Source: a virus. Taken from it: 50,465 nt of DNA. Under the pieces are notes generated by a model, which saw only the letters and a list, made by a program, of their open reading frames with translations, was not told the origin of the DNA and ran no database searches. Shown in pieces: positions 5,851-47,716 of the stretch (positions are counted from its first letter, which is position 1; every line of letters starts with the position of its first letter). The DNA is taken from IMG/VR virus record IMGVR_UViG_3300008110_000087, positions 1 to 50,465 of that record; one strand, 5' to 3'. The position numbers and the translations under genes were made by a program.

Positions 5851-7707
5851 TTATTCTGAAAAATCTACATACTCCATTTTTTCGATACCTTGCAAGGCTT
5901 TTGTTCTTGTTGGCAACTCTGGCTTTGCATCTGTCATCGTCGCAATTGCACCTCCTCGTTGTCTCAAAAGAAACACAAGTAATGAAAGCGAATCCAATGC
6001 GTCTGGCGAATGTTGCCGTGTGCGCTTGCAGTAATCGCCTTTACTTTCCACACGAACAAGACCTTGACCCTTTTGCTTGTATCGTCTCGCAGTAGCTTGG
6101 CGCACCAACTCTTCGCTACGGAACCCCGGCGATATTTTCAGATACTCAAACTCAAGATATTTCGCTAGACCGAAAATCAATTCAGTCACAACACCAGAAT
6201 AAAGTTCCGATGCTGGCAAGGAATCGTCGCCAAGAATATGAGTATCCGTAGCGGCAGTTGAATAATTTACTCCAAGCACATCTCCCCATACAGAGCAAAG
6301 CGAGTCATGGATGCCTGCGCCATTACCTGTTCGGTCAACGCATACCCAGTTCGGAGCAATACGCATATTCTTACAGAACTTGATAATGTTATTGGCTTGC
6401 TCCAATGTCGCGGCCTTTGGAAATGGAATCTGTGAGTCAAGTTGTAAGACAACCTTTGGCTTCTTGTAATCAACAAATCTACCACTCATTGGCGTATAGC
6501 CGTCAGAGAGCCCAAATCTGCCGTAAGAACAGATTACTTGGTCATTGCCTTCCAAAGCCAAATCGAACGCACACAGAGGCACTACAGGCCCAATAAAGCG
6601 GGTAATTCCCATGGCATTGTCCATCATTGCTGGCGTCATTATCGCCATGGACACACCTTCCTGCGGGAACCAACCCCTAGCCATGGTATAATATTCCGCT
6701 GTCTTTCCTTTGGATTCGTAGGCTTGATAGCCTTCGTGAGTCTGAAGGCCGGGGAACACGATCTTCTTCTCAATCACATTCTCGCACCTAGCGGCATCCA
6801 ATCGCAATATATGCCAGCCATCACGACTCTTCCATTCCAAGTCATCCTCGCAGTCAATCGAACCCCAGCCTGATGTTGGCTCACAACGCTTGCCAAACTC
6901 GCTAGTCCTATCTTTCGGGTTACTTGCCGCAAATATCTTGATTCGTCCTTTTGCTCCTTCTGTATCCGCCGCTGACAAGATGTTCTGCAAGCCTTCCCAC
7001 ACTCCAGCAGGGACTTCTTCCGCTTCGTCCAGCACAACATGAGTCCTAGACATCCTGCCCCATTTCGGATGTGGCTTGCCCGCTCTTGGGCTAGGGTGGA
7101 AACCACGGAGAGTTCCAGTTCCGCTATCGCCCCTTGGAACAGCAACTAGGTGAATGCCATTCTTATTGTCACTATTAGCTTGGATACTTTTTACAAGTGT
7201 CTCACTGCCTTCAAATTCTGGCTTAACTAATGCAGTAGTATAGAACTTCTTAATAGCTGCAAATACATTTCGTTGTGCGTGTTCTGCTGTTAATGACACA
7301 ACTTTAATACAAGTATAGTGAGGATCACGCATCCAATCCAACAAGAACCAAGCCGCCGCACCGAATGTTTTGCCCATTGCACCTGCACCTTGGATTAGCA
7401 ACTTGTCGTGATCGAACAAGCATCTCCATGTGTTTTGACTCGACATTGGTCGCCAATCATAGACTTGTGGCCCCCAGAGAATAGTAGCGGCAGCTTCAAA
7501 CTGGTCTGCATCCAGCAAGCTCTGGACATAAGACTGCACAACTTCTTTTGACTTCGGAATGTCCAACTCGACCTTACCTTTAACAATACCTGCGTTAAGA
7601 ATGATATGCTTTGCCGCATAGACAATTCCTACATCTTCATCCTTGTCAGCCTCTTCCCGAATTTCCTCGGCTAACTTGATAACCCTATTGACGCTTCCGC
7701 CAATCAT
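5851..7707 (-). CDS. terL: terminase large subunit
   Basis: The protein has 618 residues, a normal length for the packaging motor. The N-terminal ATPase shows Walker A GAGAMGKT (about 107-114) and Walker B with its catalytic acid, VVLDEAEE (about 224-231). The C-terminal RNase H-like nuclease has the expected acidic residues: FDLALEGND (Asp about 382), CVDRTGNG (Asp about 458) and SPDALDSL (about 568-575). It would cut concatemeric DNA and pump it through the portal. The ATG overlaps the stop of the 93-residue gene upstream (ATGA). The small subunit is not adjacent: it lies ~6 kb away at 13367-13840, across an accessory cassette. Confidence 0.95.
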   Translation of the reverse strand: MIGGSVNRVIKLAEEIREEADKDEDVGIVYAAKHIILNAGIVKGKVELDIPKSKEVVQSYVQSLLDADQFEAAATILWGPQVYDWRPMSSQNTWRCLFDHDKLLIQGAGAMGKTFGAAAWFLLDWMRDPHYTCIKVVSLTAEHAQRNVFAAIKKFYTTALVKPEFEGSETLVKSIQANSDNKNGIHLVAVPRGDSGTGTLRGFHPSPRAGKPHPKWGRMSRTHVVLDEAEEVPAGVWEGLQNILSAADTEGAKGRIKIFAASNPKDRTSEFGKRCEPTSGWGSIDCEDDLEWKSRDGWHILRLDAARCENVIEKKIVFPGLQTHEGYQAYESKGKTAEYYTMARGWFPQEGVSMAIMTPAMMDNAMGITRFIGPVVPLCAFDLALEGNDQVICSYGRFGLSDGYTPMSGRFVDYKKPKVVLQLDSQIPFPKAATLEQANNIIKFCKNMRIAPNWVCVDRTGNGAGIHDSLCSVWGDVLGVNYSTAATDTHILGDDSLPASELYSGVVTELIFGLAKYLEFEYLKISPGFRSEELVRQATARRYKQKGQGLVRVESKGDYCKRTRQHSPDALDSLSLLVFLLRQRGGAIATMTDAKPELPTRTKALQGIEKMEYVDFSE

Positions 7708-7985
7708 GTAAGCTCTGGCAAATTCCTTTCGCGCTTAAATCGAAGCAACACATTCCAAACTTGTTCCAGTGTATCGGAGCAACCCTTAACTCTACGATTC
7801 ACTTGCTTTCCATCATCGTCGTAGCTTTCAACATTAAACTCCTTAAACTCTCCAGTATCATATCGCAACTTGCGTCTAATTTCTTCTTCCAAGTCGTTAA
7901 TAACTAGCAACGCATCCAATCCATGGAGAGCATAGGCATGATCATCTTGGTCTTCGGGTAAATTAAATTCTAATATAGCTTTCAT
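7704..7985 (-). CDS. small conserved-type phage protein
   Basis: The protein has 93 residues and is acidic in the first half (NLPEDQDDHAYALHGLDALL), then carries a helix with DLEEEIRRKLRY and a C-terminal segment ending WNVLLRFKRERNLPEL. The DDH-A-A pattern followed by a paired-helix segment is a form I associate with short phage proteins that accompany packaging genes; no biochemical role is known to me. It overlaps TerL by 4 nt and the methyltransferase gene by 4 nt, so all three are translationally coupled. Confidence 0.75.
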   Translation of the reverse strand: MKAILEFNLPEDQDDHAYALHGLDALLVINDLEEEIRRKLRYDTGEFKEFNVESYDDDGKQVNRRVKGCSDTLEQVWNVLLRFKRERNLPELT

Positions 7986-8497
7986 TTTATACCCCAGAAA
8001 TATAAGTCATGTGATTGGTTGTTTGTATTAAATTCAAATTGTGAAAACATTTTTTCTATTGGAAGATTATTTCTAACAATGCCTTCATTCAAATTCATAT
8101 AGTAATCGTTTGTAAATGGAGATGCCCAACCATCGGTTCTTGATGTTCCATGCTCTGCTCTACCATCGCAGGCGCAGGTAAACAAATAAAGTCCTCCACT
8201 CTTTAGGTGAAACCAAGTATTGAAGATTGTCGCTACCCAGAATTTGTCATGCTCAAAGCATTCTGTCGAAATCACAACATCAAATTCTTTTTCGCTTTTA
8301 AAGAAATTACCAGAACACACAATATCAACATTGCGTCCCTCGCCAATATCAATTCCTAAATAATCGCAATTGTCGAACAGGTATCTGTTATTTCCATTGA
8401 TGTCCATCGAGCCTATATCCAAAACACTACCTGAAAACAAATGTGGGAATCTATTTTTAACTGATTTGCAATACTCTTGTTGAGCGTGATGGGCCAT
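7982..8497 (-). CDS. class I SAM-dependent methyltransferase
   Basis: The protein has 171 residues and a short Rossmann-type methyltransferase fold. Motif I is VLDIGSMDINGNN (about 26-38), motif II DYLGIDIGEG (about 45-54, the Asp contacting the SAM ribose) and motif IV DVVISTECFEHD (about 73-84). The nearest broad family is Methyltransf_11, often linked to sugar or small-molecule methylation. Its neighbours are glycosyltransferase-like genes, so glycan methylation is a reasonable inference, but the substrate cannot be read from sequence. The start follows an AAATAAAATAAAT-ATG leader. Confidence 0.85.
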   Translation of the reverse strand: MAHHAQQEYCKSVKNRFPHLFSGSVLDIGSMDINGNNRYLFDNCDYLGIDIGEGRNVDIVCSGNFFKSEKEFDVVISTECFEHDKFWVATIFNTWFHLKSGGLYLFTCACDGRAEHGTSRTDGWASPFTNDYYMNLNEGIVRNNLPIEKMFSQFEFNTNNQSHDLYFWGIK

Positions 8498-9231: not shown

Positions 9232-9292
9232 ATTTATTCATGTAAAAAAACACCAAGCAGTAAACCATTACTCCAATAACAATGTAATTCAT
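9221..9292 (-). CDS. 23-residue single-span membrane peptide (possible)
   Basis: The ORF starts at an ATG overlapping the stop of the GT4 gene (ATGA at 9289-9292) and ends 11 nt inside the next gene. The peptide MNYIVIGVMVYCLVFFYMNK is almost entirely hydrophobic and would span a membrane once. Coupled start/stop spacing on both sides fits the style of this operon. Nothing else supports it, so it may only be a translational bridge between its neighbours. Confidence 0.4.
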   Translation of the reverse strand: MNYIVIGVMVYCLVFFYMNKYEY

Positions 9293-10395
9293 GGATAATT
9301 CTTTATTGAGGAAAACAAGCCATTTCCTTCAGCATACCAGCCTTTGCCTTCGTAGACATCAAGCACATCGTTAAAATATTTCTCATACATCGGCGCAACT
9401 TTCTCCAGACTGAAGTTCATGCCCCACTTTCTGCAATCTTTGGGGTCAATCTCATCAATATTATTGATCGCATCTACAAAGTCACCCATCGTCCTGCATC
9501 GGAATCCTGTGATGCCATGAAGGTTGTTTTCTGTAAAGCTACCCCAGTCTGTCGTAATCGTTGGCGTTCCACATAGCAAATTCTCAACCTGAACCCCTCC
9601 GAATGGTTCAATATATTGCGAAGGAACGAACGAAGCCTTGGCGTTAGCCATTAGCTCCTTTCTCTTTTCCACATCAGCATAGCCAACATATTCCACATGG
9701 TCGGGCAATTTATACCCTTCTTCTTTCTGACCAGCTATTACCAGCTTCACCCCTGCTTTCTCCGTAGCTTGAATCGCTATATCAACACCCTTTCCGCTGT
9801 AAACTCTGCCCAGATACAGAAAGTAATCCTCTTTCTTTGGGTTAAACTCGAAATCTTCGACATCGAAGTAATTCGGGATCACGACATCATACCAGTCTTG
9901 CCGACAATTTCCAACAGCCTGCAAGCCGTAATAAGCATGGTAAATCGCGTAACTCTCCCAGATTTTCCACCTTGCCCAATGTCCTCCCGCATACCCAATG
10001 CCCGGCTCAACGCAAATCATGTCTTGATGCGCGTCACAAATCGGCCTCACTCCACTACCCCAGAAAGGCAAAATAAAATCATGCTTCAATTTCCTTTTCC
10101 CTACTTCCTCAATCGCATTCTTGAAAAAGGTCTGATATGCGTGATCCTGCATATTGAACTTGAAAAATGTCTTTCTCCAATCATGCGAACCATAGCTTTT
10201 CTGGAAGTCATCGTTTGTCAAAACTGGTACATTCTCCGTGCAGATTAAATCCGAATCCTCATGGCCGTAGTGAATGACTTCATGGCCTCGCTCGACCATC
10301 ATCTTGCCAAACTTTACAACCTTTTGAGTATATGCACAAGCATTGAACTCTTTCGATGTTACTGTGTGTGGAAGCGAAAGTGCGTGGAATCTCAT
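9289..10395 (-). CDS. glycosyltransferase family 4 (GT-B fold)
   Basis: The protein has 368 residues. The C-terminal domain has the GT4 hallmarks: YFLYLGRVYSGKGVDIAI, then KLVIAGQKEEG, and the donor-binding E-x7-E region EPFGGVQVENLLCGTPTI, whose Glu residues contact the nucleotide sugar. The N-terminal domain includes HYGHEDSD and ICVEPGIGYAGG. It would transfer a sugar with retention of configuration. The next gene starts at its stop. It sits among other sugar-modifying genes between the two terminase subunits, where it may glycosylate a virion protein, phage DNA or the host surface. No membrane span is visible. Confidence 0.9.
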   Translation of the reverse strand: MRFHALSLPHTVTSKEFNACAYTQKVVKFGKMMVERGHEVIHYGHEDSDLICTENVPVLTNDDFQKSYGSHDWRKTFFKFNMQDHAYQTFFKNAIEEVGKRKLKHDFILPFWGSGVRPICDAHQDMICVEPGIGYAGGHWARWKIWESYAIYHAYYGLQAVGNCRQDWYDVVIPNYFDVEDFEFNPKKEDYFLYLGRVYSGKGVDIAIQATEKAGVKLVIAGQKEEGYKLPDHVEYVGYADVEKRKELMANAKASFVPSQYIEPFGGVQVENLLCGTPTITTDWGSFTENNLHGITGFRCRTMGDFVDAINNIDEIDPKDCRKWGMNFSLEKVAPMYEKYFNDVLDVYEGKGWYAEGNGLFSSIKNYP

Positions 10396-24105: not shown

Positions 24106-27100
24106 TTATTTTTTACCAGAAATTGCAGGCATTGCAAGAGGCATTTGCGTGTTGTCTCTCATTGCCCCCATCAATGTCGTTTCATTTCCCTCAAGGATTT
24201 TTTGTTTTTTACCAGCATCTTCTTGAATGTTTGCATACGCTTCTTTGAAGTCAGGAAAATATTCCAAGTGAGTTTTGGGATTAGAATTTAAAAAGTTATT
24301 TCCATTAACTGGGCCAAGCATTACCCATGAATATGCTTCATGCGGAACAAAATTAGGATCAGCCTTCAATTGCTCTGCCGCTTTTGCTTCTTGAGCAGTC
24401 ATTCGTTTTGCCTGTTTAGGGTCATCGCCTAAATACACTGCCATCAAATCTGGATTTCTTGAAAGCTCAACACTTCCAACAATGTGATTAATCCTTCCAT
24501 TTTTGAAATCCATCGTTTGATCGAGGACACTATCTACATTAAAATCATCAATTGTAAGTCCTAATATTTGAGCAATAGACGCTTTTCTTCCTTTAAATGT
24601 ATCGTCAAGACTTATAAGTTGTTTATTTTTAATTATTTTTAATAAATTTTTAAATGATTTTGTTTTCTTAAATTCATCTAATGCGCTTTTATTTTTAATA
24701 AAAGTATTTTCACTTCCAGTTCCACCCTTGAATCTTGTATAAGCAGTTTTATATTTTGTTATTACAGATTTAATTAATTCTTCGTCGGAAGTTTCAAGAA
24801 ATTGATCATATTTTAATTTTGCTAATTCTATATCTTTTTCTTTTAATTTTATTTCATTATTTAATTTTTTAATTTCTTCTTTATTAGAAGATTCTTTAAT
24901 AAGTTTTTTTGTTTCTTCAATATAATCGTTTGCAGATTTTATATTTTTTTGCTGATCTGCTCTTTTTTGTTTTTTAACTCCAATGTTAGCAAGTATTAAA
25001 AACAAATCTTTTTGCTGTCTTGTTATTGGCGCGTTTTCAATTTCATTAGAAATATTTCTTACTTCTCTTGCATTTGAAGCATGAGCATCTGGCCCCATTA
25101 AATATGTTAATAGATTAAATGCATTAAAATTAATATTTTTATTTTTCATGGAAAGCACTGGTTTCCATTCATTATTTGCCCATACTGCCCTATATTTTAT
25201 TCTATCATCACCAACAATTACAGAGTTAGCATTTGATTTCAACCACGGAAAAATAATTCCTCCCATGTCTCCGCCTGTGGCAGTTTGCCTGTCTGCCATT
25301 GCAAGCTGAACATTTTTTCCAGCGTGTTCTATTTCTGCATCTTTAAAAACAGGTTTTTCAATTAGTTGTGGATCAAATTTAAACGAAACAGGTTTATTTT
25401 CGTGCTGATAAAACGCAACTTCCGCAGGTCTTGTGTAATCAAATAAATCTTTTTCAACTTCCTCTGTTATCGGAATGCGTTGTGATAGCAATGGCAATGC
25501 TTCATCTGCACGAACAGGTCGCGTCAATGCAACCCTTCCTTCTTTTCCATTTGATAATGCTTGATCCAAATAGCTGTAATCATATCCAGCTTGCGTTTTA
25601 CCAACTGGACGCTCTGGCATGAACTGCAATTGACCACCCTTGACTTTGCCTGCCATTTCTGGAGTGATGTTTACTCGCCAGATTGGGGTTTGTGATCGCT
25701 TTTCAGCTTCAGCCCACGCTTCATTTGCCGTTGCAAATCTTGCTAAAACTTCTGGAGAATCGCTAAATTCAAGTCGATATGGAAGAGGTTGACTATCTCT
25801 ATTTACTTTGTATTGAGCTTCAGATTGATCAATTTCAGATTTCTCAACCTTACCACCCATCTTGGCAACATACTTGCCGATCTCTTTAGGAAGGATGGTA
25901 TCGTAGAATCCTTTCATTCCTTCTCCGCCAACTTTCAAGTCAATCCCTGATAAGATTCGTTGCCCTTCAGCATATGGTTTTGAATCAATTAACTTTTGAG
26001 TTGCTTCTTTTCCAATAATATCTGGCAATTGTTCTTTTGTAGCTTTTTCTTCAATTACTTTATTTCCACTTGGATCGTATGCAGTTAAAATATTTAGGTC
26101 TTCTACCCATTCAATTTTAGAAAGACGCTTGCTCAAATCATAGCGTTCAGCTTGCGTTTCACCAGTAGTCCAACCAATCCATTTCTTACCTGACTCGACG
26201 GCATCACGCAATGCTCGCTTGAACAACTGAACTCCCCAATCTTTGCGGAATGGTGCGTCTGGAATTCCAGACTGATACATCTTGTCTGTTTTCGGAACTA
26301 TTTCAAAATTTGAATTTGGAAGTAATTTTTTAAATTCAGAAATTTGATTATCAGCGTCTTCTTTAGTTAAATGTTCACCATATTCTTTTCCGTCAATAAT
26401 AACTTTATATGATGTAGGTTTGTCCTCCTGATACCCTTTCTCCCTGCCCTGCTGATGCCTGTCAGACTGCAATTCCTCGATGAACAAGCCATCATTGCCT
26501 TCAGCATCTGTGCGCTCGTTTAAGCGCATATGCGCTATGTAGTTTGGAACATCTGGGAAGTGAGAGGAGGTGTATGTATTTGAAATTTCTGATTCAAGTT
26601 GATTTCGTCGAGCATTAATTTGGGTCAATCTATTTGACATTTCAGAAGTGATTGTGCCAAGACTTCCGCTTCTAATTTTTTGATATTCTGATTCTAATTC
26701 TGTTAATTCTTTCTTTAAATCTGGCATCGACAAAACAACCTCACGATAGTTTTCGCCACCGGGTAGTTGGTATTGACCAAATTTTGGAGGGTTTTTTAAT
26801 CCCTGTCCCTGTAAATCTAATTTTTCTGCTCTTGTATTTAAGAACTCATTTTCTTGAAAATATTTTTCAGCAGTCTTTTTATCACCTCGTCTTTGAGCCT
26901 GTTGAGCAAGATTCATTACTCTTTCAGCTTCATCATATAAAGTTTCTGTAGTGCTTTGATCTCTGATATTCATCAGCTTGATCAATTCATCATACTTGTC
27001 TTCGCCAAATGATGGATCATCAATAGGATGTTGCTTTAGCTTTTTATATTCAGCTTCAAGTTCAGCAAGACGATTTGCATCAAATGGTTCTTTGCCACCA

Positions 27101-30100
27101 AGCGTTACTTCCTCAAACTTAACAGCACCTTCATTGCGAAGATACTCCATTACTTTGTCTTTTGGAACCTTGCCTTGGTTTTCCGCTGCAAGACGATCAA
27201 TTTCACCAAGCACGCCAGACCATTTTAGTTCTTCAGCTTTTACATTCTGTGGATTGCTGATAATTGCTTTTAGCTGATCTGGAGATGCGAATTTACCTTG
27301 CACCTTTTGGTCAATTGTTTGCTGCAATCCAGAGTAAAAACCACGCTCTGGAGTAGGATAGCGTTCTGGTTGAGTTACAGCTTTTTTGACTGGTTCTGCA
27401 ACTTCACCTTCCATGCGCTCTGGCATGAAGTTTTGCTTTGCGAATCCATAGCTTACTGGCAACTTCGTCGCATTAGGATTTTCAAGCATTTCTGCAATAT
27501 GATCCACGCGAATTGACATGATCGTGCGATTAGGGTCTTTCCCACGAGGATCACCTTTTTTACGAGGGATTTCGGTTCTATCAAGGTTTGTATACTCTGT
27601 AGCTTTGTCGTAAAGGTTAAGAAGATCGTTAAAGATGTTCTTCTTTTGCAAAGCAATTTGTGGGTTAGCATCAAGCCCAGTCTCGCCCCGTTCCCCTTTC
27701 TGCCAATTATTCAAATACTTTGTGAAATCATCAAATGTGCGCTCAAGATTATTGTCCCAAAAACGCAAGCGTCCCGGCATACGCTCGTTCCACAAGCGCA
27801 TTTTATCAAAGATTCGACCAACCGAAATTGTGGTAACAAGGAAATTGCCAGCTTTTGACAGGTGCATTCCAATTGGAACCAAGTCATAAATTTTAGGTGA
27901 GAATGCTTGGTATGTTCCATTGTCATTCATCACCGCTGCGTAGTCCGTAATGAACCTAGTGCCATCTCCGCGAGCGATAGCATCATTCACTTTGAGCATA
28001 TGCTGCTTGAGGGTCTTTGGAATAAGACTCTCTGGCATATCTTGAATTGCCTTGATTTGCGCTGGAGTGAATGTGCCTCGATATGTCTCTGATCCTTCCG
28101 AAACTTGTTCAAAACGATTAGGAGTTCCGTAGTCGTCGGTATCTAATGCTTCAACAATTAGCTTGCGTCTTTCTGAGGCAATCTTCTTTGCGTCTTTCGC
28201 GTCATACATGACAGGTGTTACCCCGTCTGGTTGCATGACTAAATCGCGTGAGACAACAAGCGTTCCACCTTCGGGAACTTGCAATCCTTGTGCCTCAACA
28301 GGGATGTCTCCGTATCCAGAAAGTTTTTTAAATCCACCTTCCTCACTTTGGAATGTCCCTTCCCGTGGATTTGGAGTTGTGACTGGCATTGAATCGCCAA
28401 TCTGGTTTCCGTCTTTATCAAATACCTTTACCTTAAACTCGGTCTTAAATAGAGGGGAATCTTTGCCAAAGCGATCAAGCAACGCAGAGTTTTTCATCAT
28501 CTGCGCTCTGCTGATTTTAGGCATTTGAGCTTCTGCAACGGGAGGGGAAATTTCACCATTCAAAGCAACGATCTGGCGCATCGCATCACGAGCCGCTGCC
28601 ATCGCTTCTGGCTGGAACTCTGCTCTAGTATTTGCAGCTGCTACAATGTCTCCACGGCCACCGAATCCGTAGAAACGATTGATGGCACGATCAAGCAGGT
28701 TCTTCCTTGCTTTGATCTTTGCACGATCAAACATGGCAAGCGTTGCAGAGCTTAAATCTTTTCCAAGATGCCTGCTAGTAACTTCACCAAGAAGGTCAGC
28801 CATAACCTCCCGCTTCATGTATTCAGACACCCTGTTCTCGTCTAGCTGGCCACGGGATTCATCCCAAAGTTTGTTTAGCTTTGCGAAAGATTCTTTGCCT
28901 TGAGGGTCTAAGTGGCGAAGGTATCCATCGTTGAAAAGCTCGACCAATTTTGCTTTTGAAAAAACACCGGGGGTCGTTGCCTTTATGTTTCCAGCAGCAT
29001 CACGAATTTCATTCTGGAACAACATTGAACGGACATCTCCAAGAGCATCTTGAAACTCTGGAACAGCATCCATAAAGTGGCTGGACTCGTGAACCAATGC
29101 TTCTTGTGGAGATTCGCCAAATGTGCGAATCCTCTCCCGAATGGAATCAGCATTAAGAACAATCGATGGTTTCCTGCGATCAAATACAACCCCCTCCTGT
29201 GCGGGGTTAGAGTAAAATCCAGCTTGGCTTGCCATTTGCGCCAAATCGGCATCTGGAACATCTTTGTTTGCTGGGTCGTTGCGAAGTTTTTGATAAATCT
29301 GATCCGTGGATAGGATGTTAAATCCAACATTATTCTGACCAGTCCTCAAAACACCATTGGTTATGTCTTGCAAGTCAGCGTATGTTTTAAGGAATTGACG
29401 ACCAAATTCGTTGCGAGTTTGAACATTTGCTCGTTTAGTAAGCGATAGTGCCTTTGTATTTGCATCAACCAATGATTGCGCTTCTTTTATTCTTGCAGAA
29501 TCATTTGAAGTAATAGCACTAGCCAACACCGATTGTGATTCTGACAATTTTTTCTCTCTAAACAAAATAGCATTATTGAAATCTGACATTTGATTTAGGT
29601 TGGCTTGCGTATCTGCGTCAGATTCTTGGAACCTACGATGAATACGAGAATCATCAGAGATTCTTTCACGCTGGGCAATCACAGGGTCAATACCCATGAA
29701 TTTACCCTTGATGTGTTGCAATGCCCTTCCTCCAAGGCTAATTGCAAGGCCATCAGAAAGAATCTGCTTCATTTCTTCTGGATCAGCAGACTCTAAAGCT
29801 CCCGTAGTAAGAGCAAGCGTAGTTCCATGGATTCCAGCTTTAGCGTATTCCGAAGCATTGGAGAGGATATTATCAATGGTCTTGCCGCCATGAGACAATA
29901 GTTTAGCCTTCAATGCAGACCCTTCTGCAGACTTTCCAAGAGTTTCAAATGTCTTTCCTAGAGGAGCTACTTTCCTCGCCTCTGCAACTTCTTTTACCAG
30001 TGTTGGAATCTCAAGTCCGAGCTTCGTTCCTTTCAACACAGACCTTGCGGCAGCACCACCTAATGCGCCTGTCAAAAGTCCAGCTAACGGACTCTCTGGA

Positions 30101-31431
30101 GCTGCTTCATAGCCAGCCACACCGCCAATAACAGGAGCGGCAATTTTGCTTAATGTTCCAGTTGCTTTTTCAGCAATCGGTTTGAATTTCTGAACTGCTT
30201 CTTCAAGTTTTTCCGCCCCCCTTGCAACGGATTCGGCTCTTGCCGTCCTTTGCTCAAGCATCTTTTCAAACTTTTGCTTTTCCAGAACTTGAGCAGCTTT
30301 ATTTATTTCAGCTATTTCATCGTCCGTTTTACCGATATATTTTAGTCCTTTAGCAATTTCTGGAGTTACCTTGGCAACCAAGCTAACCGCACCCATGGTT
30401 CCCATGCCAAGCTCTCCCGGCAATAGAAACTCGCCTGCGATTCTAGGCCCAGCTTGCTCCTCTGGAAGCTCCTCCTCCATTTGAGATGTAAAATCTTCAA
30501 TGCCTTTTTTAACAAGATCATCTTGTTGTTTTTTGGCTTCCTCAACACTAATGCCAGTTCTTGCCGCCAATTCTTTTGGCGATTCCATTTCTGATTTAGC
30601 GATGAAAGCGAGAGCGTCTTTAGTAAGAGGATTATCAAGCATCCTTCCGTAAACAGTAGGATGTTCCTTGAAGTATTCTGCGTGAGCTTGATCAACAATC
30701 CTCCTGCCTTTCCAACGCTCAAAACGCTCCTCTGGATCAACGAGACCAGCCTTCTCGCCGAGAGCATCAGCCCATGAGAAGCCGCCTTCTTTTGCTTTTG
30801 TAGCTGCCCAAGTAACGCTTTCTGGAAGCTCAAATACTGGAGCCATGAAGGAATATACCGATCCTTTGGCTTTCTGAAGATTTTTTAATGCTTGCTCATC
30901 GCTAACAGTCATGTCTGTAGCGTTGATAACATCACGAGCTAATTCACCTGCTCCAAGGCCAACTTTGATTGGTATTTTAGCTACATTCTTTACGACATCA
31001 ACAGCATCACCACCGAGATTATACCAATCCTCCCACGATGTTGGAATGGATGGCATTTTAGATTTTTCAATCTCAAATATCTTTCTAGCCTGTGCATCAT
31101 CAAGCGGAATATCTTTTCGAGCTTGAGCTACCTTATACTGCTCATCATCGCTTAATGCGTTGAACAAACCTTTATCTTCGTCATCAAGTTCGTTTGATCG
31201 TTTGTGAGAAATAGCATTAAGAAAAACATCTCCTCCAGATATTGTAGTAGGAGGCTTTTCTTCTAAAGATTGCTGTGCTGTTTTGAAGAAATCTGTTTTA
31301 GGTTCCTGCGGAGCTAGTTCAGCAGATACTTCTTGCTTAATTTCATCAAGAATGCTTTTCGGCTTTTCTTCTGGTTGTGCAGATAGTTCAGATTCAACCT
31401 CTGACCTAATTTCATCAAGAATGCTTGCCAT
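24106..31431 (-). CDS. giant polyvalent virion protein (2,441 residues) with HExxH protease-like and polyvalent-type domains
   Basis: This is the largest gene of the window. The N-terminal ~60 residues hold two tandem copies of SILDEIRSEVESEL-like sequence. A helical region with Gly/Ala-rich membrane-like segments follows (about 430-480). A zinc-metalloprotease motif, VHESSHFMD (HExxH at 781-785), lies mid-protein. The second half has modules typical of phage polyvalent proteins: GFYSGLQQTID (about 1360), EELQSDRHQQGREKG (about 1650), PDAPFRKDWGVQLFKRAL (about 1725-1742) and WRVNITPEMAGK. FMPER occurs twice, at about 1335 and 1937, at module borders. Such proteins are probably packaged and ejected with the DNA. 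Residues ~2085-2280 are unusually Lys- and AT-rich. Confidence 0.8.
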   Translation of the reverse strand: MASILDEIRSEVESELSAQPEEKPKSILDEIKQEVSAELAPQEPKTDFFKTAQQSLEEKPPTTISGGDVFLNAISHKRSNELDDEDKGLFNALSDDEQYKVAQARKDIPLDDAQARKIFEIEKSKMPSIPTSWEDWYNLGGDAVDVVKNVAKIPIKVGLGAGELARDVINATDMTVSDEQALKNLQKAKGSVYSFMAPVFELPESVTWAATKAKEGGFSWADALGEKAGLVDPEERFERWKGRRIVDQAHAEYFKEHPTVYGRMLDNPLTKDALAFIAKSEMESPKELAARTGISVEEAKKQQDDLVKKGIEDFTSQMEEELPEEQAGPRIAGEFLLPGELGMGTMGAVSLVAKVTPEIAKGLKYIGKTDDEIAEINKAAQVLEKQKFEKMLEQRTARAESVARGAEKLEEAVQKFKPIAEKATGTLSKIAAPVIGGVAGYEAAPESPLAGLLTGALGGAAARSVLKGTKLGLEIPTLVKEVAEARKVAPLGKTFETLGKSAEGSALKAKLLSHGGKTIDNILSNASEYAKAGIHGTTLALTTGALESADPEEMKQILSDGLAISLGGRALQHIKGKFMGIDPVIAQRERISDDSRIHRRFQESDADTQANLNQMSDFNNAILFREKKLSESQSVLASAITSNDSARIKEAQSLVDANTKALSLTKRANVQTRNEFGRQFLKTYADLQDITNGVLRTGQNNVGFNILSTDQIYQKLRNDPANKDVPDADLAQMASQAGFYSNPAQEGVVFDRRKPSIVLNADSIRERIRTFGESPQEALVHESSHFMDAVPEFQDALGDVRSMLFQNEIRDAAGNIKATTPGVFSKAKLVELFNDGYLRHLDPQGKESFAKLNKLWDESRGQLDENRVSEYMKREVMADLLGEVTSRHLGKDLSSATLAMFDRAKIKARKNLLDRAINRFYGFGGRGDIVAAANTRAEFQPEAMAAARDAMRQIVALNGEISPPVAEAQMPKISRAQMMKNSALLDRFGKDSPLFKTEFKVKVFDKDGNQIGDSMPVTTPNPREGTFQSEEGGFKKLSGYGDIPVEAQGLQVPEGGTLVVSRDLVMQPDGVTPVMYDAKDAKKIASERRKLIVEALDTDDYGTPNRFEQVSEGSETYRGTFTPAQIKAIQDMPESLIPKTLKQHMLKVNDAIARGDGTRFITDYAAVMNDNGTYQAFSPKIYDLVPIGMHLSKAGNFLVTTISVGRIFDKMRLWNERMPGRLRFWDNNLERTFDDFTKYLNNWQKGERGETGLDANPQIALQKKNIFNDLLNLYDKATEYTNLDRTEIPRKKGDPRGKDPNRTIMSIRVDHIAEMLENPNATKLPVSYGFAKQNFMPERMEGEVAEPVKKAVTQPERYPTPERGFYSGLQQTIDQKVQGKFASPDQLKAIISNPQNVKAEELKWSGVLGEIDRLAAENQGKVPKDKVMEYLRNEGAVKFEEVTLGGKEPFDANRLAELEAEYKKLKQHPIDDPSFGEDKYDELIKLMNIRDQSTTETLYDEAERVMNLAQQAQRRGDKKTAEKYFQENEFLNTRAEKLDLQGQGLKNPPKFGQYQLPGGENYREVVLSMPDLKKELTELESEYQKIRSGSLGTITSEMSNRLTQINARRNQLESEISNTYTSSHFPDVPNYIAHMRLNERTDAEGNDGLFIEELQSDRHQQGREKGYQEDKPTSYKVIIDGKEYGEHLTKEDADNQISEFKKLLPNSNFEIVPKTDKMYQSGIPDAPFRKDWGVQLFKRALRDAVESGKKWIGWTTGETQAERYDLSKRLSKIEWVEDLNILTAYDPSGNKVIEEKATKEQLPDIIGKEATQKLIDSKPYAEGQRILSGIDLKVGGEGMKGFYDTILPKEIGKYVAKMGGKVEKSEIDQSEAQYKVNRDSQPLPYRLEFSDSPEVLARFATANEAWAEAEKRSQTPIWRVNITPEMAGKVKGGQLQFMPERPVGKTQAGYDYSYLDQALSNGKEGRVALTRPVRADEALPLLSQRIPITEEVEKDLFDYTRPAEVAFYQHENKPVSFKFDPQLIEKPVFKDAEIEHAGKNVQLAMADRQTATGGDMGGIIFPWLKSNANSVIVGDDRIKYRAVWANNEWKPVLSMKNKNINFNAFNLLTYLMGPDAHASNAREVRNISNEIENAPITRQQKDLFLILANIGVKKQKRADQQKNIKSANDYIEETKKLIKESSNKEEIKKLNNEIKLKEKDIELAKLKYDQFLETSDEELIKSVITKYKTAYTRFKGGTGSENTFIKNKSALDEFKKTKSFKNLLKIIKNKQLISLDDTFKGRKASIAQILGLTIDDFNVDSVLDQTMDFKNGRINHIVGSVELSRNPDLMAVYLGDDPKQAKRMTAQEAKAAEQLKADPNFVPHEAYSWVMLGPVNGNNFLNSNPKTHLEYFPDFKEAYANIQEDAGKKQKILEGNETTLMGAMRDNTQMPLAMPAISGKK

Positions 31432-31433
31432 CT

Positions 31434-33164
31434 TTATTTGCTTCCAAGAAAGGATTCAAGTGATTCGGTGGTTTCTGTAGTTCTAGGAGTCGCAAGTGGG
31501 AATTGAGGAGCAGGTGGTGGAGTGGCTTGCGGTGCTGGTTTTGGAGTTCCTTTTTTCTGCAATTGTTCTTCACGAACAAGATCGTATAATTTTTTACGCA
31601 AAGCAAGGAATTCAGCAGAATTTCTTTGCTCTAAAGGAAATTGCTCAAGTTGCATTGACAAACTTCCAATTTCATCAAACTTTCCTTCTTCAGCTTTAAC
31701 TTCTGGAATATCAAATTTTACAACAACTCTTTCTGGATCAAGTTTGTATTGTTTTGCCAAATCAGAATATGATTTTTTAAGACCTTCATATTCTCCAAGT
31801 CTTGAATCATATTGTTTTTTAGCTTGATTTAAGAAGTCTTTTCTTTGCGATTCAGACAATATCTGTCCGCTTACAATTTTGTTATATGAAGCAATAACTC
31901 TATCTGGAACTCCTCCAGCATTTTGAGCATTTGCATACTCTCCTTCCCTTACTGTTGACGCTGGATCAAGGAGTTTCATGTATCCAAAAATCAATGACAT
32001 ATCTCCAGCGGCAGATGGTTCCATGCCAGATGTTTTTATGCTTCTCCATGCACTTTGAATTACTTTAAAGTCTTTTGTTTGACCGATATATTCATCACGC
32101 AATTTCTTTTCAGTATCAAAGTCCGCTCCCGCTTCAGTCTTTTTTTGTTCAGCAGAAATTTCAGCGGGTGTCATTTTTTCACGAGGAGGAACACGGAAGA
32201 ATGGTTGCCCATTTTCATCAATTTCAGCAGTGTATGTTCCGGGCTTGAAGCCGGGAATATCTCGATACGCTTCAGCTTGAGCTTGTGCCTCTGTGTCAAA
32301 GTCGCCAGCACGAGGAGGCTTTACTTTTTCTTCTTTCTTAGGCTCTGCTTTTTCTAGCGAAAGTAATCGTTTAGGCTCTGGCTTCTCTAAAGCAGCAGGA
32401 GTAACTCCATATTTTTCAAAGGAAGCCTTTATTTCTTCTTCTTGTTTAGGAGATATAAGACTTGAAGTAACCTTACCAAGAGTCATTGATGGTGGTTCAA
32501 CTTCTGGCATTTTAGAAATTGGCCCAGCACCAGTAGATGCAGTCAATTCAGATGCTGGCAATCCACTCAAATATCCTACATCCCTTGATACATTTTCAGC
32601 TATTCCCTTTGCATAATCAGGAGTTATGCTGCTTGTTGTTGGAGGTTCAATTAATTCAGCCGCTGATGGTGTTAAAGAAAAATTAATTTCACCTGATGTG
32701 TCTTCATCTGATGTATCTTCACCCTTTTCTGGAAGAGGTTCATCATCAACCATTGGAATCCTCCTTTTTGCACCAGATGGTAGTGGTGGAAGAACAGCAT
32801 TTAACCTGTTTTCAGCAGACTCGGTTTCTGCTACAAGTTTGCGGGTTTTTAATGCTTCAAGATATGGATCAAGTTCTTTTGCCCTAATGCCAGCAATCGC
32901 AATCTCATGTGCATACTTGCGCTTCTCCTTAGCTTCCTCTTCCTTCTTCTCATACCTAGCAGTAATCCCACCCAACGCACCTTTAGCGATACTAGAAACA
33001 GCACTAGCGATGCCTTCAGCTACAAGCTCTGGTCGAGAAGACTGAATCTGGATAGCTTGAAGTGGCTGGAACTGCAATGCTCCGCCGCGAGTCAAATCAA
33101 TTGCTGGCAGCGGTTGCAAACCAGCTAGGTTAGCGAATTGAGGAGAGAAGGAATATTCAGCCAT
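31434..33164 (-). CDS. probable internal virion protein
   Basis: The protein has 576 residues. The N-terminus is Pro/Gln-rich (MAEYSFSPQFANLAGLQPLP), followed by a charged helical segment (ARYEKKEEEAKEKRKYAHEI), a long acidic and Pro-rich linker (about 120-330) and a C-terminal helical domain ending in repeated Pro/Ala and QFPLATPRTTETTESLESFL. No enzymatic motif is visible. It lies 2 nt upstream of the giant polyvalent gene and shares its operon, as internal core proteins do in short-tailed phages. That role is inferred from position. Confidence 0.65.
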   Translation of the reverse strand: MAEYSFSPQFANLAGLQPLPAIDLTRGGALQFQPLQAIQIQSSRPELVAEGIASAVSSIAKGALGGITARYEKKEEEAKEKRKYAHEIAIAGIRAKELDPYLEALKTRKLVAETESAENRLNAVLPPLPSGAKRRIPMVDDEPLPEKGEDTSDEDTSGEINFSLTPSAAELIEPPTTSSITPDYAKGIAENVSRDVGYLSGLPASELTASTGAGPISKMPEVEPPSMTLGKVTSSLISPKQEEEIKASFEKYGVTPAALEKPEPKRLLSLEKAEPKKEEKVKPPRAGDFDTEAQAQAEAYRDIPGFKPGTYTAEIDENGQPFFRVPPREKMTPAEISAEQKKTEAGADFDTEKKLRDEYIGQTKDFKVIQSAWRSIKTSGMEPSAAGDMSLIFGYMKLLDPASTVREGEYANAQNAGGVPDRVIASYNKIVSGQILSESQRKDFLNQAKKQYDSRLGEYEGLKKSYSDLAKQYKLDPERVVVKFDIPEVKAEEGKFDEIGSLSMQLEQFPLEQRNSAEFLALRKKLYDLVREEQLQKKGTPKPAPQATPPPAPQFPLATPRTTETTESLESFLGSK

Positions 33165-33689: not shown

Positions 33690-33986
33690 TTAATTTTTAA
33701 TATTTAGTTTGCTTCTTGCTTCAAGGCATAGTTCGCCATTCGGCTTAAAATGCCTACAAGCATCTGGTCTGTCAAAATAAATTGAGCATGATACGCAATT
33801 TCCTACAACACCTTGCAGGGCTACGCATCGGTTGTTTTCTGTCTTCATCAAAGGATAGTCTCCTCGTTGCATTTCTTTCGGTATCTTTTCTGCATCCGAT
33901 CTGTCACGCTTAAAAATCGGCCAAGACCATTTGTAAGCACAGCAAGCACCGCAAGAAATACAGTCTTCACTTGTTACTTCTTCCAT
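33690..33986 (-). CDS. YkgJ-family Cys-cluster (Zn/Fe-binding) protein
   Basis: The protein has 98 residues. The family pattern is complete: CISCGACC (about 9-16), C54 in NRCVALQG, CVSC (64-67) and RPDACRHF (about 73-80). YkgJ-type proteins bind zinc or iron-sulfur through these Cys, and their biochemical role is unknown. The gene starts 13 nt inside the end of the PP-loop gene, so the two are co-translated and may work together. It sits oddly among internal virion genes. The start follows no clear leader. Confidence 0.85.
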   Translation of the reverse strand: MEEVTSEDCISCGACCAYKWSWPIFKRDRSDAEKIPKEMQRGDYPLMKTENNRCVALQGVVGNCVSCSIYFDRPDACRHFKPNGELCLEARSKLNIKN

Positions 33987-34810
33987 TCCACAGGACGAAA
34001 TCCAAGATCATCAATAACGATGTCCTCGTATGGAACCATTTCGCTTATATTCGTTATAGTAGCGTCTAGTTTTGGACAATGAACATGACGACCTAAATGG
34101 CGATTAACGCAATTAAAACAAGTAGGGTAGAAGTCAGCATTTAGTGACTTGTCTGGATTGTTCTTCCATTTCCCATTTTCTTTAATGTATCGAGTTGGAT
34201 CAGCAGAAACTCCGCTTTCCTCTAAATACTCAAATATATCATCATCGCTCCAATCACGCATTGGGTATAGCGACACTGGCGCACCATCAACAATGCGTAT
34301 ATCTTGAGCAAGTGGAACATGGCCTTTGATTAGGTCAGTATCTTCATACTTTGTTCCAATATAAACTGCTCCCCAAGGCCAGTTGAATGTTCCAGTAGGT
34401 CGCTGCAAGAAATCTGTAACTCCGCACAGAAACTTCTCGCCATCCTTTGGCTTCTCTGTTCCAAGCGATAGCACAACGCAATTCTGACCCCATTGGAAGT
34501 AATGCAGCATATCGAAGCGAACCTCTCCAGTATTGACATCAGGGCCATCTGCCAATGACACCTTCATCGGAGGATATTCATATACTTCCAATCCCCATTC
34601 CTTGATTAATTGATCAGAGTAAGCATATCGCTCGCGAAACTTTGGCTGACGATACTGAATGACAGGAATGTCAATTTCTGCTCCGTATCGGATAAGATGA
34701 AGTAATGCAGTAGAGTCTTTCCCTCCACTCCACATTACAACTGCTCTAGGCCATCTTTTGTTCCACTCTTTTATTCTATTTATTGTTTTATTTATTAGGT
34801 TTTTATTCAT
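33974..34810 (-). CDS. PAPS-reductase-like PP-loop ATP pyrophosphatase
   Basis: The protein has 278 residues. The PP-loop SGGKDST (28-34) activates substrate by adenylation. The central part (YAYSDQLIKEWGLEVYEYPP, then YPMRDWSDDDIFEYLEESG) matches the PAPS reductase/adenylyltransferase superfamily. A C-terminal Cys set, PTCFNCVNRHLGRHVHCP (C231, C234, C245), may bind metal or a cluster, as in sulfur-transfer relatives. True PAPS reductases use a single C-terminal Cys motif, so a sulfur-transfer, base-modification or other adenylation role is as likely. It is coupled to a YkgJ-type protein. Related genes are frequent in phages without proven function. Confidence 0.85.
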   Translation of the reverse strand: MNKNLINKTINRIKEWNKRWPRAVVMWSGGKDSTALLHLIRYGAEIDIPVIQYRQPKFRERYAYSDQLIKEWGLEVYEYPPMKVSLADGPDVNTGEVRFDMLHYFQWGQNCVVLSLGTEKPKDGEKFLCGVTDFLQRPTGTFNWPWGAVYIGTKYEDTDLIKGHVPLAQDIRIVDGAPVSLYPMRDWSDDDIFEYLEESGVSADPTRYIKENGKWKNNPDKSLNADFYPTCFNCVNRHLGRHVHCPKLDATITNISEMVPYEDIVIDDLGFRPVEWKK

Positions 34811-45652: not shown

Positions 45653-47716
45653 TTAAGCTACTGATAATGATACGATGGTTATTTCTGATCCAGATGGAAT
45701 TGGAGTTGAAAATGTTAATGTTCTTGGAGTTACATTGTTGATTGTGTAGTTAGTTGATTTTTGATATACACCATCAACATGAACAAGATATGCTGGTGAC
45801 AATATAGACAATCCTCCAGTAATTGCAAATACTGTTTGAATCCCATCTCCTGTATATGCCCATGCGTTTCCGAAATTTGATGCTGGCAAAATTCCTGTAG
45901 CCCCCTGCGGACCTGTAGCTCCTGTTGAACCGATTACACCAGTTGCTCCTGCTGGTCCGGGTGCGCCAGAAAGAGATACTGCCCAGCTTGAAAATGAGCC
46001 AGAACCAGTAATTGATGTGATATTGGCAACCAATGCTCCAGTTACACTATTATAGCTAGTTACTGTTCCTTCCATTTTATTAGAAGAACTATTGGCAATA
46101 ATAATTGTCTGGCCAATGCTCAATGCCAATCCTGTTCCAACAGTAAGAGATTGACTTCCAAGAGCGATAGTCAATGTATCAGAAGAAGATGTGGTGTATT
46201 TATCTCCAGCAACCCCAGCAACGCCAGTAGCTCCTGTCGCGCCTATTCCAGTAGCTCCCTCTGGGCCAGTTGCGCCTGTGGCTCCAATTGGGCCATCAAC
46301 TCCAGTTGCACCTGTTGTCCCTGCGCCAGTTGCGCCAGCAGGACCAGTGCTTCCCGTGGCTCCAACAGGACCATCAACGCCAGTCGCTCCAGTCGTTCCA
46401 GCACCAGTTGCACCAACTGGGCCTGTGCTTCCAGTCGCGCCTGTTGGGCCTGTAGCACCTAGCCCACCATCACCCGCAATGCCAATCATCCAATCAGCGA
46501 AGTTTCCGCTACCTTGGACTGTATCAATCCATAGTTTTACCCAAGAATTGTTGACCTCAATGACATTTCCTTCAACCCAGTCATAAGGATATGCCGAGTT
46601 AGCTACAGCACGAAGGCGAGTTCCATATGTCCATCCAATCGGAGCATCTGGAGTATAGTAAAACTGCTTGTAGCCTGAAGTAATATAATGAGAAGTAAAA
46701 CTCTGGCGAACAATCGCTGGAGCTGCACCAGTTGCTCCAGTTGATCCCGAAACACCAGTTGCGCCAATAACACCAGTTGCGCCAGTTAATCCCGTGGCTC
46801 CAGTTGCTCCTACCCCAGTTGCACCTTGGGGGCCAGTTAATCCCGTGGCTCCGATTGGGCCAGTTGCGCCCGTGGCTCCAATACCTGTAGCTCCAGTTGC
46901 TCCAGCAATCCCGTTCAATGAAATAATTACAATCTCTGATCCAGCAGGGACAGGAGCCGACATTATCAGATTTGCGCCACTTATTGAATAATTATTGGGG
47001 TCTTGAGTAACGCCATCAATATTTACAGAATAAGCCAATGGGTTATTTGTGGTATTCCCAGAAATGTTAAATGTGGTATTATTGCTGCCAGTATAAGCCC
47101 AACGAACACCACCAAATGGCCCAGCACTGCCAGCAACACCAGTTGCTCCTTGAGAACCAGTCGCGCCAGTTGACCCAAATCCAGTTGCGCCCTGTGGTCC
47201 TGTTGCTCCCGTTGCGCCAGCGCGACTGGAAAGCTCAACGATAGTAAGAATTGATCCTGTTGGCAGGAATGTATCAAGTGTTAAAACTCGCGGCAATGAA
47301 GTAGAAATAGTGTAACTAATGGGGTCTTGGACAACGCCATCAATATATGCCAAATATGCGTTGCGATCTGGCTGATAAGCTCCAGTTAAAGTAAATGCAG
47401 ATTGACCAGAACCCGTAAATCCCCAGCGCAAAAATTGACCATATCCATCAAGCGATTGAGCAAACAAGCGAAGCAAGTAGCAAAGCAAGCCTTCGCCTTC
47501 TTCACGAGGAATTTGATCTACTTCAGCAGTATTATTTGGATCGCATGGAATATCCCATACAACTCGACCATTTACTACAGTCTTACTAATCGTTCCATAT
47601 AGAGCATAAACAAGGTTACTGATAAGGGATGGAACAGATTCTGGGGATACCTGTGGATATGGAGTGTCAGGGCAGCAGGTGCTGCTATAAGTGGAATTAT
47701 TGCAATTGCAGGACAT
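45653..47716 (-). CDS. collagen-like tail fibre protein
   Basis: The protein has 687 residues. The N-terminal ~90 include a Cys-rich start ([17 protein letters not shown]) and a helical part. Four stretches of Gly-X-Y repeats rich in GATGATGP (about 165-200, 270-340, 420-500 and 590-615) alternate with folded domains. One domain type occurs three times, with W-x-YTG, F-x-I-x-G, V-x-IDGV-x-QD and GS-x-I-x-I-x-SL (the last at the C-terminus). It should form a trimeric rod with beta-rich knobs, probably a fibre or spike. The gene is the first after a possible promoter at 47728-47755. Confidence 0.75.

What the first reader, a model, noticed from the sequence alone, without database searches (positions are those of the whole stretch)
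24106..31431. 2,441-residue polyvalent protein with HExxH motif mid-chain
Seen: HESSH at residues 781-785, modules with EELQSDRH and PDAPFRKDWG patterns that I associate with phage polyvalent proteins, and Gly/Ala-rich membrane-like segments. Established: large polyvalent proteins carry effector-like enzymes into the host with the DNA. Inference: it is ejected and has at least one protease-like and several unassigned activities, perhaps anti-defence.
Basis: partly seen in the sequence, partly recalled or inferred. Interest (0 to 1): 0.6.

Follow-up and report, generated by a model that had tools for sequence, protein, structure and literature searches.

The report
Phage injection protein with swappable effectors
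This giant phage protein, probably injected into the bacterium with the viral DNA, has a fixed front half with a protease-like active site and a back half of interchangeable enzyme modules, each ended by the same short peptide, so near-identical phages carry different cargo.

Summary
The ORF is real: 2,441 aa on the MINUS strand (31431→24106), with HESSH at 781-785 as stated. It is a phage "polyvalent protein" (a known class), last gene of a late virion operon. The HExxH is no accident: both His, the Glu and a later Glu875 are invariant in 32 relatives sharing as little as ~25% identity, and the predicted structure places them as in zincin peptidases; no solved structure matched significantly.

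New here: the protein is a conserved chassis (1-1345) plus an interchangeable effector array. A relative 95-97% identical over ~26 kb (L001) loses all identity exactly after FMPERMEGEV (residue ~1345) and regains it 0.2 kb past the stop; six more relatives break at the same spot. Chassis ≥95% identical still carry mostly different arrays. A short peptide, [IV][QR][FY][ML]P[EAS], punctuates the arrays (15-fold enriched; homology ends fall there 7 times more often than at random).

The window's cassette (EELQSD/PDAPF module) is a large domain family without a Pfam model, with a confident model that looks like a divergent GNAT fold (not significant). Likely mechanism: packaged, injected, and possibly cut at FMP junctions by its own zincin, freeing effectors. 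Cutting, injection and anti-defence are inferred, not shown.

The parts
24106..31431 (-). polyvalent protein gene, 2,441 aa
31315..31425 (-). two copies of an N-terminal short motif (SILDEIRSEVESEL residues 3-16, SILDEIKQEVSAEL 26-39)
   Evidence: self-repeat score 38 against a shuffle maximum of 27; most relatives have 2-3 copies of their own different motif
29662..30429 (-). Gly/Ala-rich weakly hydrophobic helical region (residues 335-590), part of chassis
28537..29364 (-). zincin-like domain (residues 690-965)
   Evidence: A3/A5 alignments and AlphaFold2 model
29077..29091 (-). HESSH, residues 781-785; invariant H, E and H in 32 relatives
28807..28809 (-). Glu875, invariant; candidate third zinc ligand on a later helix
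27430..28539 (-). M block (residues 965-1334), most widely conserved chassis part, function unknown
27415..27429 (-). junction peptide 1, FMPER (1335-1339), end of chassis
27394..27402 (.). common DNA breakpoint: nucleotide identity to seven relatives ends here
27097..27345 (-). leading helical subdomain of the cassette (residues 1363-1445)
25624..26784 (-). QSD module core (residues 1550-1936), probable divergent GNAT-like fold
26455..26478 (-). EELQSDRH (1652-1659), predicted strand then loop; second Glu and Gln invariant in 84 sequences
26233..26262 (-). PDAPFRKDWG (1724-1733), same module; Pro1727 invariant
25609..25623 (-). junction peptide 2, FMPER (1937-1941), end of cassette
24109..25608 (-). 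C-terminal module (1942-2441), also exchanged between phages; fold unknown
31434..33164 (-). 576-aa gene directly upstream, conserved beside the polyvalent gene in 47 of 62 family loci (median gap 3 bases)
   Evidence: PHROG 13634, unknown function

Best explanation
It is a large virion-carried polyvalent protein of a tailed (probably short-tailed) phage, built as a conserved chassis (N-terminal tandem motif, Gly/Ala-rich helical region, zincin domain, M block; residues 1-1345) followed by an exchangeable array of effector modules, each ended by the junction peptide [IV][QR][FY][ML]P[EAS]. In this phage the array is one QSD module (probable GNAT-like acyltransferase) plus a C-terminal module. 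Most likely it is packaged, injected with the DNA, and cut at the junction peptides, by its own zincin, to free the effectors. SHOWN: conserved chassis, array exchange at a fixed junction, recurring junction peptide, conserved zincin residues. INFERRED: packaging and injection (gene context and class), proteolysis, cleavage at the junction, GNAT activity.
For: Window and L001 are 95-97% identical over ~26 kb except 27396-23900, i.e. from codon ~1346 to 0.2 kb past the stop; seven relatives break at 27394-27402. Of 31 pairs with chassis at least 95% identical, the median share of homologous array is 40%. Junction peptide: 237 copies downstream (2.89 per 1000 aa) against 15 upstream (0.19), ends of homologous segments within 10 aa 34% against 5% random; circular-shift null 0.067 +/- 0.012, observed 0.337, best of 2000 nulls 0.113; 48 unrelated upstream contexts share I/V, Q/R, E/A/S at positions not in the search pattern or only loosely in it. 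H781, E782, H785, E875, N760, Y837 invariant in 32 sequences; HExxH on helix 196-210 and Glu on helix 286-309 of the model. Chassis matches predicted phage polyvalent proteins. Arrays of relatives hold ART, GNAT, kinase, zeta toxin, C5 methylase. Last gene after a conserved late block.
Against: No protease activity or cleavage is shown; the zincin model has no significant PDB match (best relevant hit YbeY, E 2.9) and pTM is 0.49. Junction peptides without a known protease could be mere linkers. Zincins without FMP junctions exist (L055, L061, L142), so the two are not strictly coupled. The QSD model has no PDB hit below E 0.29. All relatives are metagenome assemblies.
Confidence: 0.6

Rival explanations
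1. The junction peptide is only a seam: a short extended linker that suits domain ends and is kept because homologous recombination reuses the same short DNA stretch; the protein acts as one uncut chain, as N4 virion RNA polymerase is reported to be packaged.
For: Among close relatives the codons are nearly identical (TTC ATG CCA GAG/GAA CG), which would seed recombination. The peptide lies where both models go from ordered to disordered. N4 vRNAP carries an MPTase but is packaged unprocessed (PMC5512222).
Against: F/Y and M/L alternate with quite different codons (TAT CTT, TTT TTG) across the family, and flanking positions are also constrained in 48 unrelated contexts, which points to selection on the peptide.
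Confidence: 0.3
2. The zincin is itself an effector against a host protein, and the junction peptide is cut by a host or other phage protease, or serves as a docking peptide for packaging or unfolding.
For: Iyer et al. list host-directed action as an alternative for polyvalent MPTases (PMC5512222). Zincins occur without FMP junctions.
Against: The zincin is in the conserved chassis, present once in nearly every complete member, not in the exchanged array where effectors sit.
Confidence: 0.2
3. Assembly error: the arrays look exchanged because of chimeric metagenome contigs.
For: All members are IMG/VR assemblies; short repeats such as FMP could promote misassembly.
Against: Open frames run through every junction; the same breakpoint recurs in contigs from different metagenomes, and in L001 identity resumes downstream in the same order.
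Confidence: 0.07

Closest known systems
Polyvalent proteins (Iyer et al. 2017, PMC5512222)
   Same: Giant phage protein with zincin-like peptidase, ART, ParB-like, GNAT and unassigned domains in one chain, encoded with virion genes; predicted processing by the zincin
   Different: That paper says polyvalent proteins did not conform to the polymorphic-toxin layout; this family does (fixed front, variable rear array). I found neither exchange at a fixed junction nor a junction peptide in the passages of that text that I searched (it raises cassette recombination only for one kinase locus), and the QSD module has no Pfam model
Polymorphic toxins / effectors with exchangeable C-terminal domains (general knowledge and PMC5512222)
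   Same: Conserved N-terminal delivery part, peptidase, hypervariable C-terminal cargo replaced by recombination
   Different: Phage late protein, several modules per array each with its own junction peptide; immunity genes were not looked for
T7 gp16 / N4 gp50 ejection proteins
   Same: Very large last or near-last protein of the internal-protein gene block, directly after a ~60-kDa protein (N4: 66-kDa protein before vRNAP)
   Different: No detectable homology of the chassis to N4 gp50 (hhalign probability 0.2); no transglycosylase or RNA polymerase domain found

Membership tests
phage polyvalent protein | several unrelated enzymatic domains in one polypeptide | tested here: met
   zincin-like chassis plus QSD module here; ART, GNAT, kinase, methylase, zeta toxin in relatives' arrays
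phage polyvalent protein | encoded among late/virion genes | tested here: met
   same strand and block as tail and virion genes; most upstream neighbours conserved in 35-47 of 62 loci
phage polyvalent protein | packaged and injected into the host | not testable with these tools
   needs virion proteomics and infection assays
zincin-like metallopeptidase | HExxH plus a downstream Glu ligand, conserved | tested here: met
   H781, E782, H785, E875 in 32 of 32
zincin-like metallopeptidase | core fold: three-stranded sheet, HExxH helix, helix bearing the Glu | tested here: inconclusive
   secondary structure of the model fits; no significant PDB match
zincin-like metallopeptidase | peptidase activity | not testable with these tools
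   needs purified protein
common phage MPTase clade of Iyer et al. | Asp three residues after HExxH and His at the end of strand 2 | tested here: not met
   Asp788 present here but in only 6 of 32 relatives; an invariant Asn760 stands on the strand before the HExxH helix
GNAT acyltransferase (QSD module) | GNAT fold | tested here: inconclusive
   model pLDDT 84; many of the best PDB hits are FemX/FemA, SSAT, Naa10-type and other GNATs but E is 0.29 or worse; no GNAT Pfam hit among the 25 families listed for the 84 members
N4-type virion RNA polymerase | sequence homology of the C-terminal packaging region | tested here: not met
   hhalign probability 0.2; hmmsearch not significant

The most novel reading that the evidence does not exclude
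[IV][QR][FY][ML]P[EAS] is a processing signal: the chassis zincin cuts the injected chain at every junction, so one packaged protein becomes several free effectors, and any module ending in this peptide can be plugged in. This would be a phage counterpart of polymorphic toxins with a readable module code.
Probability: 0.35. Interest if true: 0.78.

Novelty: new variant of a known kind. Interest (0 to 1): 0.62.

Why it matters
Phages that are nearly identical apart from their presumed injected effectors form a natural experiment on what those effectors do. The junction peptide gives a simple way to cut giant polyvalent proteins into modules, which can then be clustered and tested one by one, and it makes the old proposal that polyvalent zincins process their own chain testable at named sites.

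Tried and rejected
Pfam and PHROGs on the whole protein: nothing convincing. phmmer against PDB: nothing. Zincin block by tblastn in annotated phages: nothing useful. M block: only marginal hits. Homology to N4 gp50: not detected. Homology of the 576-aa neighbour to the gene upstream of HTVC028P gp34: none. Idea that each protein has its own matching junction motif in non-FMP lineages too (FSR/FSP): no concordance (permutation p 0.53). Idea that the N-terminal tandem motif is a shared address tag: the motif was not found in other proteins of 16 loci. First module clustering by single linkage merged most pieces into one cluster and was not used for counts. Papers on junction or cleavage motifs in polyvalent proteins: none found in the held library.

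Full report
WHAT IS THERE. The window is an IMG/VR virus record of 50,465 bases without identical ends. It encodes a tailed phage: terminase large subunit at 5851-7707, Erf-like annealing protein, replication initiation protein and DnaB-like helicase on the plus strand, tail and virion genes on the minus strand between about 48 and 31 kb. The ORF of the finding is on the minus strand, 31431 to 24106, 2,441 aa, and closes that late block. All named motifs are at the stated residues.

CHASSIS. A first scan found two close relatives, a second one more, and a profile of the zincin and M blocks found 56 loci in viral contigs. They share an N-terminal region, a zincin-like block (590-965) and an M block (965-1345). 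In 32 aligned members H781, E782, H785, E875, N760 and Y837 are invariant, although identity to the window falls to 25%. The AlphaFold2 model (mean pLDDT 79, pTM 0.49) puts HExxH on helix 196-210 after short strands and the invariant Glu on helix 286-309 (model numbering; add 579). This is the layout given for polyvalent zincins: three strands, a helix with HExxH, a later helix with Glu (PMC5512222). Foldseek against the PDB gave nothing significant; YbeY, also a metal protein with a HExxH-type site (own knowledge), is a weak hit. Against predicted viral structures the chassis matches phage proteins named ART-PolyVal-like, NAT_SF-containing and large polyvalent protein associated; the best hit, E 7.8e-13, is unnamed and the ART-PolyVal-like one has E 3.5e-12.

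EXCHANGEABLE ARRAY. After FMPERMEGEV (1335-1344) relatives carry different modules: the window a QSD module, L001 a ParB-like and an ART-like module, L002 an ART, L010 two ART-like modules with another tail; L011, L012 and L022 combine QSD with ARTs (ART by PF18760, weak for L001 and just below the curated cut-off for L002; ParB by eye). At DNA level L001 is 95-97% identical to the window over about 26 kb but not over 27396-23900; L002, L010, L014, L174, L175 and L177 also stop aligning at 27394-27402. In L002 and L014 the C-terminal module is 85-90% identical to the window while the chassis is 73-75%, so modules travel separately. Of 31 pairs with chassis at least 95% identical, the median share of the array that is homologous is 40%; L220/L221 have chassis 99.6% identical and only 13% (pairs are not independent and some arrays are cut by contig ends). 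Arrays of 32 members contain ART-PolyVal in 20, GNAT in about 4, and single cases of C5 DNA methylase, zeta toxin, polyvalent kinase and phosphoribosyltransferase.

JUNCTION PEPTIDE. The pattern [FY][ML]P was noticed by eye at module ends and then tested. It is 15 times denser downstream of the chassis than in it. Ends of homologous segments lie within 10 residues of it in 34% of cases against 5% for random points; permuted motifs show no such effect. With each protein weighted equally and motif positions shifted in a circle, the observed 0.337 exceeds all 2000 nulls (maximum 0.113). Taking one copy from each of 48 unrelated upstream contexts, the flanking positions show I/V/A, Q/R and E/A/S. 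In the two models the peptide stands where confidence drops to disorder. In proteins whose QSD module ends in FMP or FLP the pattern recurs about 13 times more often than in other QSD proteins.

QSD MODULE. In Pelagibacter phage HTVC028P it sits in gp34 between the internal protein genes. Invariant residues over 84 sequences include Glu1653, Gln1655, His1624, His1634, Arg1636 and Tyr1843 (residue numbers converted from the model's by adding 1339). The model is good (pLDDT 84, pTM 0.78). Many of its best PDB matches are GNAT or Fem transferases, but with E of 0.29 or worse. The order of strands and helices, a Glu on the strand before the loop and a Tyr on a late helix would suit GNAT catalysis; this is inference.

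MECHANISM. Shown: a conserved chassis with zincin residues, exchange of the rear part at a fixed point, and a recurring peptide at module ends. From established knowledge: polyvalent proteins are thought to enter with DNA, P1 DdrB is processed before packaging, and N4 vRNAP is not (PMC5512222). Inferred: injection, cutting at the peptide by the chassis zincin, and release of effectors. I give the chassis-plus-array description about 0.9, injection about 0.8, self-cutting at the junction about 0.35, GNAT fold about 0.6. The confidence of 0.6 given for the best explanation refers to the whole statement with self-cutting counted as its leading but unproven step. Nothing here tests an anti-defence role.

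LIMITS.

Noticed in passing
window 31315-31425 and N-termini of chassis-family loci (L015, L179, L203, L209, L213, L224 and others): Most family members start with 2-3 copies of a 10-15 residue motif; the motif differs completely between lineages but copies agree within a protein (38 of 60 beat all 40 shuffles; some of these are Pro-rich stretches). Possible multivalent packaging or partner-binding tag; not found in other proteins of the same loci.
   Followed up: partly
L004 5493-12653 (Dolichospermum phage Dfl-JY45): One protein with two QSD modules, four ART-PolyVal domains and a zincin-like stretch (HEVVGH); modules there end in F-S/A-R type peptides rather than FMP.
   Followed up: partly
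PHROG 7348: This 'endolysin' family matches 77 of 84 QSD modules; the name probably comes from fused lysozyme domains and misleads annotation (Nostoc phage 4,012-aa 'lysin').
   Followed up: partly
window 33974-34810: Protein with a PAPS reductase-type domain inside the late gene block, conserved in 35 of 62 family loci.
   Followed up: no
window 9289-10395 and 7982-8497: Glycosyltransferase (PHROG 3408, E 1.7e-194) and SAM-dependent methyltransferase genes near the terminase.
   Followed up: no
window 45653-47716: 687-aa tail fibre with collagen-like repeats and a DUF4183 end.
   Followed up: no
L055, L061, L142: Family members with the zincin motif but no FMP junctions; L055 has RFAGE at its QSD end. 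They could show whether the junction peptide changes with the zincin.
   Followed up: no
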